A DNA stretch of 64,000 bases from Ignavibacterium sp. (GTDB taxonomy: Bacteria; Bacteroidota; Ignavibacteria; Ignavibacteriales; Ignavibacteriaceae). Each line of letters starts with the position of its first letter. The first letter of the stretch is position 1. The notes under the pieces were generated by a model. That model had not been told where the DNA came from, did no database searches, and worked only from the letters and a program-made list of their open reading frames with translations. Shown here piece after piece: positions 28,529 to 43,647 of this stretch. Both the position numbers and the translations under genes were made by a program. The DNA is taken from NCBI GenBank assembly GCA_032027145.1, contig JAVSMP010000001.1:62001-126000 (forward strand), in the 5' to 3' direction.

Positions 28529-28943
28529 TATAAAATATTATTTATTAAACGATGGCTTAAGTTATAAATCAAATATTAAAACTTCTAATCCTTTAACAGA
28601 GCAGCTTGTAACAACAGCAAATTACATTATGCAGTAAACGAATTTAGATTCACTCAGAATAGAGAGAGTTAATAATCTCTGAATAAAATGACTTTGATTC
28701 TTTAATAACTGTAAAAAGATAACTATCTGTTTTTACAGCAATAAAACTGAGAAATTTTTACCATAATCTTTTTGCTGACTGATTGATAAGTATTTATTAG
28801 CTCTTTTACTAATGGCATCATTTTGGCTATCATAATTTCTATTACACAAATCCAGTAAGAATTATTGTTATTTAAGAACTATTAATTCGTATATTAAAAC
28901 AGAAAATACAATGTTTTGTATTAACTTTTACAAGGGAAATCCA
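28529..28943. other. 415-base divergent intergenic region
   Basis: This AT-rich gap separates the SDR (minus) from the macroglobulin gene (plus) and must contain both promoters. It holds a hairpin at 28709-28738: CTGTAAAAA pairs perfectly with TTTTTACAG, with an inner GAT/ATC extension across a 2-base bulge. I see no coding sequence or RNA gene otherwise. The frame of the downstream gene extends back to 28911, but the better start is at 28944. Confidence 0.5.
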
Positions 28944-31900
28944 ATGGCTAAAATAAATTTTATTCTTTGGTCGTTAATAATTTCACTCCTTCTAGTTCCA
29001 GTTATTATTTCGCAGACAACCAAATCTTCAGAGAAGTTTTATAATTCTTCGTGGGAAAAAGCTGATTCATTAGAAAGAAGCGGACTTACAAGATCGGCAC
29101 TTAAGGTTGTTGAAGAGATATTTGCATCTGCAAAAAAAGAAAAGCAATATCCTCAGTACATAAAAGCCGTTCTCTTTAAGCTGAAGTTTGCAAATTATGT
29201 TGAAGAGAACAGCCATATAAAGATTGTTAATGAAGTTAAGAAAGAAATTCAGGAATCATCATTCCCTTCAAATGCAATATTGAAATCAATACTTGCTGAT
29301 ATGTTTTGGGAATATTATAAAAACAATCGTTATAAATTTCTGCAAAGGACAGAAACCGTAAATTTTGGAAGCGAGGATTTTTCAACCTGGGATTTGAACA
29401 GGATCATAAGAGAGATAACAAAATATTATTTAGGTTCGATTGAAGACAAAGAAAAGCTACAAAATATTTCGTTAGAAGAATTTGAACCGATTTTAATTAA
29501 TCAAGATTCAGACAATGCTCATCTGCGTCCTACCCTGTTTGATTTATTAACACATAAGGCTTTAGCTTTTTTCATAAGTGAGGAATCTGCCTTAACTCAG
29601 CCTGTTTATAAATTTGTATTAAACAACGAAAATGATTTTGCAGTTAATACAGAATTTATAAAAAATGTTTATACTACTAAAGACTCACTGTCACTTAAGT
29701 TTTATGCAATTCAGCTTTATCAAAAATTAATTGAGTTCCATTTATCCTCCGGAAATAATGAAGCATTGCTTGATGTTGATATTGCACGGCTAAATTTTGT
29801 TAAGCAAATCAGCATATTAAAAGATAAGAATAAGTTTTATTTCAGAACATTGCAGAATTTAGCTGAAAAACAAAAGGATTTTCCTCACTCATCATTAGCT
29901 TGTTTTTATCTTGCACAATACTATAAAGAGGAAGGAAATAAATACAATCCTGATGTTTCTGATGAATTTAAATGGCATACAAAAAAAGCATTACAAATAT
30001 GCGATAGTATTGCGGTAAAATATCCCAAAACTATCGGCACATATAATTGTTTAAACTTAAAAATTGAAATATTAAGCAGATCAATTAGTCTGCAGATTGA
30101 AAAAGCAAACCTGCCCAGCGAACCTTTTAGAGTTTTAGTATCGTATAAAAATATAGAAAAGCTTTACATGAGAGTTATTGATTTGAATGATACTCTCGAA
30201 GCTGAAGTAAAATCCAAAGATGATGAACAAATGATTAAGATATATACTGCTCAGACTGCAATTAAAGAATGGTCGCTTAATTTGCCTGTTAAAGATGATT
30301 ATCAAAATCATAAAACAGAAATAGTAATTCCATCTTTACCGGTTGGCAAATATTTAATTATGGCTGCAACTGATTCAAATTTCACTTACATAAAAAACGG
30401 AATAGCATATTGTAAAACCTGGGTTACAAATCTTAGCTTTATAAGAAGAAGTTTTCCTGATAATTTTGCAGAAATAATGGTGCTCGACAGGAAAACAGGT
30501 GAACCTATATCTGATGTTAATATTGAATTGTATAATACTGAATATAATCAGAGAATAGGAACATACCAGTATGTAAAATCTGATTCCGGCGAGACTGATT
30601 CAAAAGGTAGGTTTAAGTATAAGTCACTTAACTATCATTATTATTCGAATTATAAGGTTTTATTGGTAAAAGATAACGATGAATTCGACTCTGAAGACAA
30701 TTATGATTATAGGTATTCAAGAGACAAGGAGTTACAAGAAGTCAATTCTGCATTATTCCTTGATAGAGCAATATACAGACCGGGACAGATTGTTTACTTC
30801 AAAGGTTTAATGTATAAAACTGATTATAAAAAAGACCATGATATCATTTCAGATAAAAGAACTACAGTAACACTTTATGATAATAACAAACAGAAAATTG
30901 CTGATACAACTTTAACAACAAATGAATTTGGAACTTTTAATGGACAATTAACCATTCCATTTGGAAGAATAGGCGGTAATTACTCTTTATCAAATGAGTT
31001 CACTACTAAAACATTCAAAGTTGAAGAATATAAAAGACCAAAATTTGAAGTTAAGTTTGAACCAATTAAAGGAAGCTATGCCCTGAATGAAAAAATTTCA
31101 GTAACAGGTTTTGCCAAAACTTTTTCTGGTGCAAACTTAAATGATGTTGAAGTTAAATTTCGAGTTTCTAGAATCACATCATTCCCTTTTTATAACTGGA
31201 GATACAGAAATTATTATAACTGGTATAATCGTAATTATTCATCCACTGAAATAGTTAACGGCACTATTAAAACCGATAATGAAGGAAAATTCATAGTTGA
31301 GTTCGATGCAATTCCGGATCTGGCGATTTTAAGAGAAACCAACCCGATTTTTAACTACTCAGTTTATGTTGATGTTGTAGATGCTACGGGTGAAACCCGT
31401 TCTGCTCAAACTAATATAAAAGCTGGCTATGTTGCTATAAATATTTATTCAGAAATTCCTGAAATTATAAACCAGAAATCAAATGATGAATATGCAATTA
31501 ATACTATTAATCTGAATGGACAATTTGAACCAGCAGAAGTATTTATTGAAGTTTATAAGCTTAAAACTCCTGAAAGGGTATTTAGAAATAGACTATGGAG
31601 CAAACCAGATAGCTTTATTTTATCTGAATCAGAATTTTATAAGACGTTTGAATTTGATGTTTACAATGATGAGAATGAATATTTTAATTGGGAAAAAGAC
31701 AGTTTAGTTTATCAAACAAATCTGATAACAAAAGAAAACTCGATTATCAGATTTGATGGAAAGAAAGCCTGGTATATAGGGAAGTATCTTGTAAATATTA
31801 AAACTAAGGACAAGAATGGAATTCCGGTTGAAATTACTAAATACTTTACATTGTTTAATCCAGATTCAAAAGAAATTCCTCTTAATAATACAATCTGGGT

Positions 31901-34900
31901 TCATCTGGATAGTAAAATTTATCAACCCGGTGATACTGCAAGACTGTATTTTGGTTCGGCTTTGAAAAATGTTAAAGCTCTGTTTGAAATCGAGCAGGAT
32001 GGAAAACTTTTTGATGAAAAACTGATCGAGATAAACAATGAACAAAAAATTATTGAGATAGAAATTGAAGAGAAGCACAGAGGAAATATTGCTGTAAGTA
32101 TTTCGTTAGTTATAAATAATGAAAACTTCTTAATTACTAGGCATATTATGGTTCCGTGGACTAATAAAAAATTAGATATCACGGTGGAAACATTCCGTGA
32201 TAAAATAACGCCTGGAGTGCCGGAAAAATGGTCGTTTAAAATCCTTGATTTCAAAGGAAAGAATGCAGATGCAGAATTTCTCGCTTCAATGTATGATGCA
32301 TCGTTAAATCAGTTTGCTGCTAATAACTGGTACTTTAATGTGCATCATGGGTTTAGCACAAAATTATTCTGGAACAGTTCAAACTGCTTTAGTACGAGTA
32401 ATTCATCATTCTTTGCTATCAATTTTAACGAGCCTTATAAGTTTAATTTCGGAATTTTATATCCACAACTGGATAATTTCGGTTTTTCGTTTTATGGATT
32501 CGGTTACAGGAATAAGTATATCTATCAGCCGCCTAAAAAGAAAGAGAGAAAGGAGAAAGTATCATTTATTGAAGATAGCGAGTCTGATTATCTTAAAAGT
32601 TCGGTAAGTCTGGATGAAGTAATAGTTGTTTCTGAAAGACCTTTGATAGAAAAATCTTCTACAAATACTACGAGAATAGTTTCTAGTGATGAAATTCAAC
32701 CTCTCCCAGTTAGAGGTGGGCGAGTAGATGAAGTTGGATATATTGTAGAAGGAATTTCACAAAACGAGATGGAAACTGCTGGTGAAAAATTAAAATTTGA
32801 AGGAATTGCCGCAAGAAAAAATCTTAACGAAACCGCTTTTTTCTTTCCAGAATTAAGAACAAATAAAAACGGTGAAGTAATAGTTTCGTTTACCACTCCC
32901 GAAACTTTAACCCGATGGAAGTTTATGGGCTTTTCTCATACAAAAGACCTTGAAGTAGGATTTATAACTAAAGAAACTGTTACTAAAAAGGATTTGATGA
33001 TTCAGCCAAATCCGCCAAGATTTTTAAGAGAGGGTGATGAAATATATTTTACAGCAAAAGTTAGCAACCTTTCAGATGATTCACTCTCTGGGTCTGCAAC
33101 TCTACAGCTTTTTGATGCTTTTACAATGCAGCCGGTTGATAATTTATTTGAGAATAATAAGTCCATAAAATCATTCAGTTTAGATAAGAATATGAGTGAG
33201 GCATTAAGCTGGAGATTGAAAATCCCGACTGGAATAACAGAAGCAATAGTTTATCGTGTGTTGGCTAAATCGGATAATTTTTCGGATGGTGAAGAAAATG
33301 CGCTACCAATTCTTACAAACAGAATGCTGGTTATAGAAACTTTGCCGCTTCCGGTAAATGCCAATCAGACAAAAAGTTTTGTGTTTGATAAATTAAAAAA
33401 CAATACATCAACTACTCTGCAGAATTACAACTTAACACTCGAGTTTACTTCAAATCCTGCCTGGTATGCCATTCAGGCTCTGCCGTATCTTATGGAATAT
33501 CCCTATGAATGCAGCGAACAAATATTCAGCCGTTATTATGCAAATAGTATTGCAGGTTTTATCGCAAACTCAAATCCAAAAATTAAAAAGGTATTTGATA
33601 GCTGGAAAACAACAGATAAAGATGCATTACTTTCTAATCTTGAAAAGAATCAAGAATTAAAATATGCTTTATTAGAAGAAACTCCGTGGGTATTAGAAGC
33701 ACAAAATGAATCTGTAAGAAAAAGAAACATCGGATTATTGTTTGACCTTGTTAAGATGTCTGATGAACTTAAAAGAGCTGAAGATAAACTGAAAAAGCTT
33801 CAATACTCAAACGGCGGCTGGCCCTGGTTCGAAGGTTTACCGGAAAGTAATTATATAACTCAATATATTGTTGCTGGTATCGGACATCTTGAAAGACTTG
33901 GAATAAATAATTTCAGAGTTAATAATAACTTACTAAGTATGCTTCAGAAAGCAATCAGTTACATTGATTTAAAAATGTATGAAGAATATAAAAAATTAAA
34001 AAATTCAAAAATTAGTTTATATAAAAAAAATATAGGTTATAGTCAGATCCATTATCTTTATGGCAGAAGTTATTTCAATGATATACCTGTTGATAAAAAA
34101 TATCAGGAAGCATTTGATTACTGGAAAAATCAAGCTGAAGACTACTGGCTTTCTAATAATAAATATATGCAGGGAATGATTGCTTTAGCTCTTTATCGAT
34201 TTTCGGAAACAGAAATAGCCGGTGAAATAATTAAATCAATCATTGAAAATGCCGTTATGAATGATGAAATGGGAATGTACTTTAAGGAAGAAAGAGGCTG
34301 GTATTGGTATCAGGCACCAATCGAAACTCAGGCATTATTAATTGAAGCGGTGGATGAAATTACTAATGACCAAAAATCTGTTGATTTGATGAAAACTTGG
34401 CTGCTTAAAAATAAACAAACAAATGACTGGAAAACTACCACTGCAACTGCAAATGCTTGTTATGCACTTTTACTAAGAGGAACTGAATGGCTTGCTGAAA
34501 CTCAATTGCCTGATATAAAAATCGGAGATGAAATACTGTATATCGAAAATAAGCCCGATTTACATATTGAACAAGGAACTGGATATTTTAAAACATCCTG
34601 GAAAGGTGATAATATAAAACCAGAGATGGCTGATATTACAGTAACAAATAAAAACAATATTGTTTCGTGGGGTGCACTATATTGGCAATATTTTGAGCAG
34701 CTTGATAAGATTACCTTTTCAGAAACTCCATTAAAAATTAATAAAAAATTGTTCTTGGAAATTGATACTGAAAGCGGTAAAAAAATTACTCCGATTGATG
34801 ACAACACTGAATTGAATCCCGGAGATAAAATAATAGTAAGAATAGAAATCAGAGTGGATAGAAGTATGGAATACATCCATTTAAAAGATATGAGAGCAGC

Positions 34901-35147
34901 AGGATTAGAACCTATAAATGTTTTATCTACTCATAAACATCAGGATGGTTTATGGTATTATGAAAACACTAAAGACGCTGCAACAAATTTTTTCATCTAT
35001 AACTTACCAGCCGGCACTTATGTTTTTGAATATCCATTAAGAGCAACTTATAAAGGCAATTTTTCAAATGGTATTACTTCAATTCAATGTATGTATGCTC
35101 CGGAATTTTCAAGTCATTCAGAAGGAAGCAGGATATCTATCAAATAA
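28944..35147 (+). CDS. large alpha-2-macroglobulin-like protein with thioester motif and TonB-plug-like insert
   Basis: A 2067-residue exported protein (signal MAKINFILWSLIISLLLVPV). Residues about 20-400 are helical and repeat-like. Beta-rich macroglobulin domains follow, including an MG2-like part (RAIYRPGQIVYFKGL). At residues about 1222-1273 there is a segment typical of TonB-receptor plugs: SLDEVIVVSERPLIEK, TRIVSSDEIQ and LPVRGG. Then comes the A2M core (LNETAFFFPELRTN, FTTPETLTRWKF) and the thioester site ECSEQ with Cys1523, followed by an alpha-toroid-like domain with GGWPWFEG. Such proteins trap proteases or guard the envelope. The ATG at 28944 has AGGGAA eight bases upstream; an earlier ATG at 28911 lacks such a site. 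A single long gene, ended by a hairpin. Confidence 0.92.
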   Translation: MAKINFILWSLIISLLLVPVIISQTTKSSEKFYNSSWEKADSLERSGLTRSALKVVEEIFASAKKEKQYPQYIKAVLFKLKFANYVEENSHIKIVNEVKKEIQESSFPSNAILKSILADMFWEYYKNNRYKFLQRTETVNFGSEDFSTWDLNRIIREITKYYLGSIEDKEKLQNISLEEFEPILINQDSDNAHLRPTLFDLLTHKALAFFISEESALTQPVYKFVLNNENDFAVNTEFIKNVYTTKDSLSLKFYAIQLYQKLIEFHLSSGNNEALLDVDIARLNFVKQISILKDKNKFYFRTLQNLAEKQKDFPHSSLACFYLAQYYKEEGNKYNPDVSDEFKWHTKKALQICDSIAVKYPKTIGTYNCLNLKIEILSRSISLQIEKANLPSEPFRVLVSYKNIEKLYMRVIDLNDTLEAEVKSKDDEQMIKIYTAQTAIKEWSLNLPVKDDYQNHKTEIVIPSLPVGKYLIMAATDSNFTYIKNGIAYCKTWVTNLSFIRRSFPDNFAEIMVLDRKTGEPISDVNIELYNTEYNQRIGTYQYVKSDSGETDSKGRFKYKSLNYHYYSNYKVLLVKDNDEFDSEDNYDYRYSRDKELQEVNSALFLDRAIYRPGQIVYFKGLMYKTDYKKDHDIISDKRTTVTLYDNNKQKIADTTLTTNEFGTFNGQLTIPFGRIGGNYSLSNEFTTKTFKVEEYKRPKFEVKFEPIKGSYALNEKISVTGFAKTFSGANLNDVEVKFRVSRITSFPFYNWRYRNYYNWYNRNYSSTEIVNGTIKTDNEGKFIVEFDAIPDLAILRETNPIFNYSVYVDVVDATGETRSAQTNIKAGYVAINIYSEIPEIINQKSNDEYAINTINLNGQFEPAEVFIEVYKLKTPERVFRNRLWSKPDSFILSESEFYKTFEFDVYNDENEYFNWEKDSLVYQTNLITKENSIIRFDGKKAWYIGKYLVNIKTKDKNGIPVEITKYFTLFNPDSKEIPLNNTIWVHLDSKIYQPGDTARLYFGSALKNVKALFEIEQDGKLFDEKLIEINNEQKIIEIEIEEKHRGNIAVSISLVINNENFLITRHIMVPWTNKKLDITVETFRDKITPGVPEKWSFKILDFKGKNADAEFLASMYDASLNQFAANNWYFNVHHGFSTKLFWNSSNCFSTSNSSFFAINFNEPYKFNFGILYPQLDNFGFSFYGFGYRNKYIYQPPKKKERKEKVSFIEDSESDYLKSSVSLDEVIVVSERPLIEKSSTNTTRIVSSDEIQPLPVRGGRVDEVGYIVEGISQNEMETAGEKLKFEGIAARKNLNETAFFFPELRTNKNGEVIVSFTTPETLTRWKFMGFSHTKDLEVGFITKETVTKKDLMIQPNPPRFLREGDEIYFTAKVSNLSDDSLSGSATLQLFDAFTMQPVDNLFENNKSIKSFSLDKNMSEALSWRLKIPTGITEAIVYRVLAKSDNFSDGEENALPILTNRMLVIETLPLPVNANQTKSFVFDKLKNNTSTTLQNYNLTLEFTSNPAWYAIQALPYLMEYPYECSEQIFSRYYANSIAGFIANSNPKIKKVFDSWKTTDKDALLSNLEKNQELKYALLEETPWVLEAQNESVRKRNIGLLFDLVKMSDELKRAEDKLKKLQYSNGGWPWFEGLPESNYITQYIVAGIGHLERLGINNFRVNNNLLSMLQKAISYIDLKMYEEYKKLKNSKISLYKKNIGYSQIHYLYGRSYFNDIPVDKKYQEAFDYWKNQAEDYWLSNNKYMQGMIALALYRFSETEIAGEIIKSIIENAVMNDEMGMYFKEERGWYWYQAPIETQALLIEAVDEITNDQKSVDLMKTWLLKNKQTNDWKTTTATANACYALLLRGTEWLAETQLPDIKIGDEILYIENKPDLHIEQGTGYFKTSWKGDNIKPEMADITVTNKNNIVSWGALYWQYFEQLDKITFSETPLKINKKLFLEIDTESGKKITPIDDNTELNPGDKIIVRIEIRVDRSMEYIHLKDMRAAGLEPINVLSTHKHQDGLWYYENTKDAATNFFIYNLPAGTYVFEYPLRATYKGNFSNGITSIQCMYAPEFSSHSEGSRISIK

Positions 35148-42151: not shown

Positions 42152-42748
42152 ATGGAAGAAATAATTAAAATATTTGAAAAAAATAAAGGTTATGCTCGTA
42201 TGGTGGAGCTAAAGAAGGCTAATATTCATACAAGACGAATTGCAAATGCTGTTGAATTAGGTGTCATTGAAAAAATAAAACCTGGTCTTTATAAACTAAA
42301 GGACTATCCTTGGGATGAGCATGGTAGTTTTGCGGAAGTAAATCATGCATACATGAAAGCTGTAATCTGTCTTACTTCAGCTGCTGAATATTATGAACTG
42401 ACGACTTTTAATCCTTTGTATATTTCAGTTGCTGTTCCACATAATACTCCAAAGTTTAACCTGGATTATCCACCAATAAAAGTTTATTACTTTGCAGATA
42501 GCTATTACTCGCCAGGAATCGAAACCCTGAAAACCAAAAGTGGAATTGTAAAAATCTACAACAAAGAAAAAACAATTGGTGATCTTTTTAGATATATGAA
42601 AAAGATTGGTGAAGATATTGCAGTGGAATCTCTAAAAACATATCTGCAAAATCGGAAAGAAAGAAATATTCCAAAACTTATTGAGTATGCAGAAATTTGT
42701 GGAGTAAAAAAGAAAATTGAACCGATGGTTAAGGCAATATTATCGTGA
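42152..42748 (+). CDS. AbiEi-type antitoxin and transcriptional repressor
   Basis: A 198-residue type IV toxin-antitoxin antitoxin. Residues about 1-60 form a winged helix (GYARMVELKKANIHTRRIANAVELGVIEKIKPGLYKL), matching the AbiEi N-terminal DNA-binding domain. The rest matches the AbiEi C-terminal region (CLTSAAEYYELT ... VAVPHNTPKF ... VKIYNKEKTIGDLFRY). By family it counteracts the AbiEii nucleotidyltransferase without direct contact and represses its own operon. Two palindromic repeats lie upstream. It overlaps the toxin start by four bases. The pair interrupts the mut genes, between mutB and meaB. Confidence 0.88.
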   Translation: MEEIIKIFEKNKGYARMVELKKANIHTRRIANAVELGVIEKIKPGLYKLKDYPWDEHGSFAEVNHAYMKAVICLTSAAEYYELTTFNPLYISVAVPHNTPKFNLDYPPIKVYYFADSYYSPGIETLKTKSGIVKIYNKEKTIGDLFRYMKKIGEDIAVESLKTYLQNRKERNIPKLIEYAEICGVKKKIEPMVKAILS

Positions 42749-43647
42749 AAGAGAAAAAAGAAATAAAAAATGTTGCAGCTTCAGTTAAAGAAAGGTTGAG
42801 GAATATTTCGGTTCAATATGGAAAAGAATTTCAAAGTATAGTTAGTCAGTATGTTCAGGAAAGATTTCTCTATCGTCTATCGCAGTCAAACTATTCTAAT
42901 AATTTAATTTTAAAAGGTGCTTTATTATTTATTGCACACGATATAAGTAGAAATCCTCCGACAAGAGATATAGATTTTCTTGGTATTTCCCTATCGAGCC
43001 AAATTGAAGAATGTATTGAGATAATAAAAGATATAGCATCAATAAAAGTTGATGATGGTGTTGAATTTACTACGATAAATATTAAAAGCAAAAAAATAAA
43101 AGAAGATTCTGATATTGAGGGAGTTAGAGTTCATATCCCGTATAAGATGGATACAATTAAAGGCTACTTCTCAATTGATATCGGATTTGAAGATACAATA
43201 ACTAACGAACCTTATGAAATTGAATTTCCTGTTTTGCTGGATTTCCCCTCACCAAAAATACTGGTTTACTCACTCGAATCAGTAGTAGAAGAAAAATTTG
43301 AGGCGATAGTAAACCTTAATTTTGTTACGAGTAGAATGAAAGATTTTGATGATTTTGTTTTTATTACGAAGATGAATCCATTCAATAAAACAATACTGAA
43401 TGATGCTATAAGTAGGACTTTTGAAAATCGGGAAACTAATATTAAAGATAGTGATATAATCTTTAATGAAAATTTTAGAAAGGATATTCAGAAGCAAAAG
43501 CAATGGCAAGCTTTTCTACAAGTAAACAAGCTTGATGAAAAAATCAGTTTTCCAGAGGTACTAATCAAAATACAATCATTCATCCAACCTATATTTGAAT
43601 ACAGGACAAAGAATAATTGGAATCCGGATAAATGGAAATGGGAATAA
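42745..43647 (+). CDS. AbiEii-type nucleotidyltransferase toxin
   Basis: A 300-residue nucleotidyltransferase-fold toxin of the AbiEii/AbiGii family. The active-site region is NLILKGALLF ... NPPTRDIDFLG: the DxD aspartates (DID) are present, and the GS/GT of the textbook motif reads GA. Later family positions include VVEEKFEAIVNL ... SRMKDFDDFVFI. The start is GTG inside the antitoxin stop (GTGA, 4-base overlap), a translational-coupling arrangement. Known homologues modify tRNA or bind GTP and cause growth arrest or phage abortive infection; which applies here is unknown. It ends 16 bases before meaB. Confidence 0.85.
   Translation: MKEKKEIKNVAASVKERLRNISVQYGKEFQSIVSQYVQERFLYRLSQSNYSNNLILKGALLFIAHDISRNPPTRDIDFLGISLSSQIEECIEIIKDIASIKVDDGVEFTTINIKSKKIKEDSDIEGVRVHIPYKMDTIKGYFSIDIGFEDTITNEPYEIEFPVLLDFPSPKILVYSLESVVEEKFEAIVNLNFVTSRMKDFDDFVFITKMNPFNKTILNDAISRTFENRETNIKDSDIIFNENFRKDIQKQKQWQAFLQVNKLDEKISFPEVLIKIQSFIQPIFEYRTKNNWNPDKWKWE

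What the first reader, a model, noticed from the sequence alone, without database searches (positions are those of the whole stretch)
28944..35147. TonB-plug-like segment inside an alpha-2-macroglobulin, where the bait region would be
Residues about 1222-1273 read like the start of a TonB-receptor plug (DEVIVVSERPLIEK, IVSSDEI, LPVRGG) and lie just before the A2M core segment LNETAFFFPELRTN, the place of the protease bait in eukaryotic A2M. A thioester ECSEQ motif follows. The segment may link the protein to TonB-dependent receptors, serve as protease bait, or both.
Basis: partly seen in the sequence, partly recalled or inferred. Interest (0 to 1): 0.6.

Follow-up and report, generated by a model that had tools for sequence, protein, structure and literature searches.

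The report
TonB-receptor plug remnant in A2M bait
This bacterial alpha-2-macroglobulin (a molecular mousetrap for proteases) carries, exactly where its protease bait should be, a shortened piece of the plug that closes the cell's own TonB-dependent transporters, and alpha-2-macroglobulins across the phylum Bacteroidota often do the same, which suggests that the trap imitates or docks to the TonB transport system.

Summary
The alpha-2-macroglobulin (A2M; 28944-35147, 2067 residues) has at its bait position a 55-residue segment homologous to the TonB box and first half of the plug of TonB-dependent receptors (TBDRs). Generic Pfam Plug misses it; a profile of the lineage's own TBDR plugs finds it (hmmsearch E 2.6e-14, best shuffle 0.4; hhalign E 5e-20, 51% identity). 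About 22-30 plug residues are missing between two 'VRG' motifs. PDB alignment puts the segment just before the residues that follow the bait in human A2M. Four species of the genus keep it (one only its TonB-box part); two sister-genus A2Ms keep other plug pieces. Of 91 Bacteroidota A2M baits, 20 match CarbopepD_reg_2 and 13 match Plug; 38 of 87 carry some TBDR-derived element, against 1.4 expected from other stretches of the same proteins. Between the two closest species the segment has 0 synonymous and 10 amino-acid changes. I conclude: an A2M whose bait derives from a TBDR plug. Whether it docks to TonB, decoys plug-cutting proteases, or is tolerated filler is not shown. Unrelated YfbK/VWA proteins carry the same mini-plug.

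The parts
28944..35147 (+). A2M gene (2067 aa from the ATG at 28944); Sec signal-peptide-like N-terminus without a lipobox
   Evidence: Pfam MG2, A2M and bMG10 over cut-off, A2M_BRD just under
30753..31004 (+). MG2 domain (PF01835), residues 615-698 of P0001
   Evidence: E 2.2e-14
31899..32216 (+). A2M_BRD (PF07703, bait-region domain), residues 997-1102
   Evidence: E 4.6e-4, 21.0 bits (cut-off 22.7)
32526..32813 (+). variable bait linker, residues 1206-1301
   Evidence: position by alignment to human A2M
32610..32630 (+). TonB-box-like LDEVIVV, residues 1234-1240
   Evidence: compare VDEVVV of the B. theta SusC Bt1763 (PMC7782687)
32634..32717 (+). first part of the plug, ERPLIEKSSTNTTRIVSSDEIQPLPVRG
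32709..32771 (+). second conserved plug part, VRGGRVDEVGYIVEGISQNEM; the stretch between the two VRG motifs of a full plug is missing
32616..32828 (+). tract with 0 synonymous and 10 amino-acid differences from the nearest relative (G064)
32832..33095 (+). A2M domain (PF00207), residues 1308-1395, following the bait
   Evidence: E 9.3e-20
33510..33521 (+). thioester motif CSEQ (YECSEQ 1532-1537)
34737..35105 (+). bMG10 (PF17973), residues 1943-2065
   Evidence: E 2.7e-29

Best explanation
The gene encodes an exported, thioester-bearing bacterial A2M whose bait is a reduced copy of the periplasm-facing end (TonB box plus first part of the plug) of the lineage's own TBDRs. It most likely works as an ordinary A2M: a protease in the periplasm cuts the flexible bait, the trap closes and the thioester (CSEQ) captures the protease. 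The added idea is that the bait imitates the part of the cell's transporters that is naturally exposed in the periplasm. The retained TonB box may let TonB bind the A2M and hold it at transport sites, where foreign proteases enter and where plugs are unfolded and can be cut. Shown: homology to plugs, bait position, an intact A2M frame in several species, and recurrence across the phylum. Inferred: cleavage at this segment, TonB binding, and any benefit of the mimicry.
For: Plug homology; a DNA match of 82% over 50 bases to a TBDR gene in the same genome. Bait site: one search aligns the RKNLNETAFF start to TVRKYFPETWIW, which directly follows the bait in human A2M. Ancestry: the four genus members with the gene keep the TonB box (LDEVIVV, LNEVLVV, LDEVVVV twice); sister-genus members L017 and L022 keep other plug pieces (E 2e-7, 1.7e-5). 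Recurrence: 20 of 91 baits with CarbopepD_reg_2 and 13 with Plug; 38 of 87 with some TBDR element against 1.4 elsewhere in the same proteins; at least 14 changes on the tree. A much diverged second A2M clade of the same family also has a TonB-box and plug-start segment in its bait (L028, L031, L033). Fast change: 0 synonymous and 10 amino-acid differences between the two nearest species. Literature: the TonB box VDEVVV is needed for SusC function (PMC7782687); an isolated NTE-plus-plug fragment interacts with the TonB C-terminal domain (PMC6434023). The genome has TonB_C proteins.
Against: Human A2M works with a bait replaced by Gly/Ser (PMC9352918), so bait sequence can be nearly free. The retained part differs between lineages: the sister genera lost the TonB box, and L109, L112 and L118 keep plug without it. 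49 of 87 A2Ms of the clade show no TBDR element by the patterns used. No protease or TonB contact was tested. The structure prediction gave no reliable model.
Confidence: 0.5

Rival explanations
1. Tolerated filler. Baits accept almost any flexible, soluble sequence, and TBDR N-terminal modules (many copies per genome) are simply the most available donors for recombination. The pieces then decay without a function of their own beyond being cuttable.
For: Gly/Ser baits work in human A2M (PMC9352918). Different lineages keep different plug pieces, in L017 even out of order. 25 to 62 matches to one NTE-TonB box-plug module in each of four other Bacteroidota genomes, most in frames of TBDR size.
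Against: Captured domains are nearly always the TBDR N-terminal module; one TSP_3 repeat is the only clear other domain. The TonB box is often the last recognisable piece. The same module sits in YfbK/VWA proteins.
Confidence: 0.3
2. Dedicated decoy. The bait reproduces the plug because a particular periplasmic or incoming protease cuts TBDR plugs; the A2M offers the same site and traps that protease. TonB plays no part.
For: Lineage-specific match: the window segment matches TBDRs of its own family but hardly those of distant Bacteroidota. The excess of amino-acid over synonymous change in the segment fits an arms race.
Against: No such protease is known to me; sister genera carry different plug pieces; the selection signal comes from one species pair and may reflect recombination.
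Confidence: 0.15
3. Chance resemblance in a variable linker.
For: Generic Pfam Plug does not hit the window segment.
Against: E 2.6e-14 with the family plug profile against 0.4 for the best shuffle; E 5e-20 by hhalign; full plug and CarbopepD domains in homologous baits.
Confidence: 0.02

Closest known systems
Bacterial A2M with thioester (E. coli YfhM/ECAM, Salmonella A2M; PDB 4ziq, 4rtd, 4u48)
   Same: MG domains, A2M domain, bait position before the A2M domain, thioester (ECAM: PMC4498604)
   Different: In cleaved ECAM the unseen part of the bait is 20 residues (Arg923-Leu942, PMC4498604), with no TBDR piece reported there, and the molecule is annotated as a lipoprotein; this one has about 95 variable residues with a mini-plug and no lipobox
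Oar/SusC-type TBDRs of Bacteroidota (NTE PF13715/PF13620, TonB box, Plug PF07715, barrel)
   Same: TonB box and two conserved plug motifs, 51% identity over 55 aligned columns to the family's own plugs
   Different: no beta-barrel hit, no NTE in this bait, plug middle and end missing
YfbK/VWA proteins with N-terminal CarbopepD_reg_2, TonB box and mini-plug (L047, L164, L198)
   Same: a similarly reduced TonB box plus VRGGR/IRG element on a non-transporter envelope protein
   Different: module at the N-terminus, with the NTE kept; no macroglobulin domains

Membership tests
Alpha-2-macroglobulin (bacterial) | MG2, A2M (PF00207) and bMG10 domains | tested here: met
   all three over the curated cut-off
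Alpha-2-macroglobulin (bacterial) | thioester Cys-x-Glu-Gln | tested here: met
   CSEQ at 33510-33521
Alpha-2-macroglobulin (bacterial) | bait region before the A2M domain | tested here: met
   profile alignment to human A2M 6tav/7voo; position only, cleavage not testable
Alpha-2-macroglobulin (bacterial) | protease capture after bait cleavage | not testable with these tools
   needs protein
TBDR plug (PF07715) | significant match to plug profiles | tested here: met
   met with the family-specific profile; not met with generic Pfam Plug
TBDR plug (PF07715) | complete plug domain | tested here: not met
   22-30 internal residues and the C-terminal part missing; so a remnant, not a plug domain
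TBDR | 22-stranded barrel (PF00593) | tested here: not met
   no Pfam barrel hit in P0001
TBDR | TonB box that binds TonB | tested here: inconclusive
   LDEVIVV fits the motif; binding not testable here

The most novel reading that the evidence does not exclude
The bait is a TonB-docking element: TonB binds the TonB box in the bait and tethers, or even mechanically primes, the A2M, so that Bacteroidota run a protease trap coupled to the TonB energy system, with the same mini-plug adaptor also used by YfbK/VWA proteins.
Probability: 0.2. Interest if true: 0.85.

Novelty: new variant of a known kind. Interest (0 to 1): 0.6.

Why it matters
A2M baits are generally thought of as nearly free sequence. 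Here, in a large part of one phylum, the bait is repeatedly built from one specific source: the TonB-facing module of the cell's own transporters. If this is functional, it links bacterial protease trapping to the TonB system and gives a direct test (TonB binding, TonB-box substitution). If it is not functional, it shows how bait sequences are recruited. It also shows TonB boxes and mini-plugs on proteins that are not transporters, which automatic annotation can misname or miss.

Tried and rejected
Generic Pfam and NCBIfam scans of the segment gave no plug hit; a lineage-specific profile was needed. Monophyly of full A2M plug modules against TBDRs was left open (support 67/78). The low-synonymous tract was checked for RNA structure (z -0.56) and for antisense ORFs (only short ones); neither explains it. 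Literature searches joining macroglobulin with TonB terms found nothing; two broader ones gave no relevant paper.

Full report
1. What is in the window. The ORF 28911-35147 encodes an A2M; the ATG at 28944 begins a signal-peptide-like sequence without a lipobox. Pfam finds MG2, A2M and bMG10 over their cut-offs and A2M_BRD just under. The thioester motif is CSEQ at 33510-33521. Neighbours are unrelated to TonB or cell-wall synthesis: a beta-lactamase-family protein and a short-chain dehydrogenase upstream; a C69 peptidase and methylmalonyl-CoA mutase genes downstream.

2. Is the plug resemblance real? The whole protein has no Pfam Plug hit at E <= 1. In the same genome, however, the A2M's residues 1227-1270 pick out long reading frames of TBDR size; several of these are independent Pfam Plug hits. 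A 58-residue query finds TBDR-like frames in its own genome and family, often as two separate pieces (query 4-41 and 35-57), and hardly any in distant Bacteroidota. A profile from 12 TBDR plugs, 11 of them from the same family, aligned to three genus A2Ms gives probability 99.3 and E 5e-20, with 51% identity over 55 columns. The gap lies between LPVRG and VRGGR, so that LPVRG[...]VRGGR of the plug has become LPVRGGR; BLASTP with one TBDR shows the same gap. hmmsearch with that profile gives E 2.6e-14 for the window bait, 0.4 for the best of 1820 shuffled baits, and nothing in the remaining parts of the A2Ms. At the DNA level, 50 bases are 82% identical to a TBDR gene of the same genome (the gene of L006 and L173).

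3. Is it the bait? A profile of 31 relatives aligns to human A2M (E 4e-9). The A2M sequence RKNLNETAFF falls on TVRKYFPETWIW, which directly follows the human bait (bait limits from established knowledge of human A2M), and E. coli YfhM aligns from shortly after its disordered bait (ECAM Arg923-Leu942, PMC4498604). Residues 1206-1301 therefore occupy the bait position. That proteases cut there is inferred.

4. Close relatives. In the genus, the three other A2Ms (L012, L013, L018) keep the TonB box; L018 has lost the plug part, and L013 keeps a longer stretch between the two motifs. In the sister genera the TonB box is gone, but L017 matches two other plug pieces, in reversed order, and L022 matches the C-terminal plug strand. 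I read this as an ancestral plug insert in the family that was reduced differently; independent captures are not excluded.

5. Across the phylum, 84 of 395 sampled genomes have an A2M match, most of them of this clade. Printing the baits shows whole NTE-TonB box-plug modules (L093, L111, L113, L117, L119, L127, L132), plug without NTE (L109, L112, L118, L149, L152), NTE with TonB box (L091, L096, L099, L122), and TonB boxes with little else (L094, L107, L135, L136, L138, L146, L150). Pfam at E <= 0.01 scores 20 of 91 baits for CarbopepD_reg_2 and 13 for Plug. With regular expressions (chosen after seeing the sequences, so descriptive), 38 of 87 baits have at least one TBDR element and 23 have two or more; random stretches of the same proteins average 1.4 and 0, and shuffles 4.0 and 0.01. 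About a dozen of these loci come from one genus, so the counts are not independent; on a quick tree with several long branches the trait needs at least 14 changes. A much diverged second A2M clade, present in the window's family, carries a prealbumin-like domain in its bait, and in L028, L031 and L033 a TonB-box and plug-start segment (EVMVIGERPFVEKSVTNTMRIVG and similar).

6. Rate of change. Between the window gene and the closest relative (84% identity), codons 1236-1306 have 10 amino-acid changes and no synonymous change; the rest of the gene has 327 and 350. The synonymous gap has a permutation p of 0.0006 for a scan of 60 same-residue codons, and N versus S differs at p 7.5e-4. Exchange of a tract between the lineages followed by amino-acid change is the simplest reading. 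It is one pair only, the other pairs lack the dip, and recombination and selection are not separated.

7. Mechanism. Shown elsewhere: the TonB box VDEVVV of a Bacteroides SusC is needed for function (PMC7782687); the isolated N-terminal region of Oar (NTE plus plug) interacts with the TonB C-terminal domain in a two-hybrid assay (PMC6434023); the human A2M bait can be replaced by Gly/Ser without loss of function (PMC9352918). Shown here: a TonB-box-like motif and plug remnant at the bait site of an otherwise normal A2M, in a genome with TonB_C proteins. Inferred: that the segment is cut, that TonB binds it, and that mimicry of the cell's own transporters is useful. I favour a bait that mimics TBDRs, with TonB docking as a possible added role; tolerated filler is a serious rival.

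8. Known or new. Literature searches of the open PMC library found no paper joining macroglobulins with TonB boxes or plugs; subscription papers and domain databases were not searchable, and some annotation systems may already label such A2Ms as plug-containing (my recollection, not tested). The same mini-plug on YfbK/VWA proteins suggests a wider use of TonB-box modules outside transporters.

Noticed in passing
L047:67-1962 (-), L164, L198: YfbK/VWA proteins with an N-terminal CarbopepD_reg_2 domain (Pfam in L047), a TonB box and, in L047 and L164, a shortened plug (RGGRGSEVL(F/Y)(F/Y)I(D/E)G); a second non-transporter family with the same element.
   Followed up: partly
window 42152-43647: An AbiEi/AbiEii toxin-antitoxin pair lies between the methylmalonyl-CoA mutase genes and meaB.
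   Followed up: no
G000:C1:437676-442205 (L002, L003, L004, L007): A second, diverged A2M of about 1732 aa in the same genome with a prealbumin-like domain in its bait; relatives L028, L031 and L033 have a TonB-box and plug-start segment there.
   Followed up: partly
L141:4151-4642 (+): Bait with a thrombospondin type 3 repeat instead of a plug, the one clear non-TBDR domain seen in a bait.
   Followed up: no
L017:4750-5238 (+): Bait holds two plug pieces in reversed order relative to a TBDR, as if permuted or left from a duplication.
   Followed up: partly
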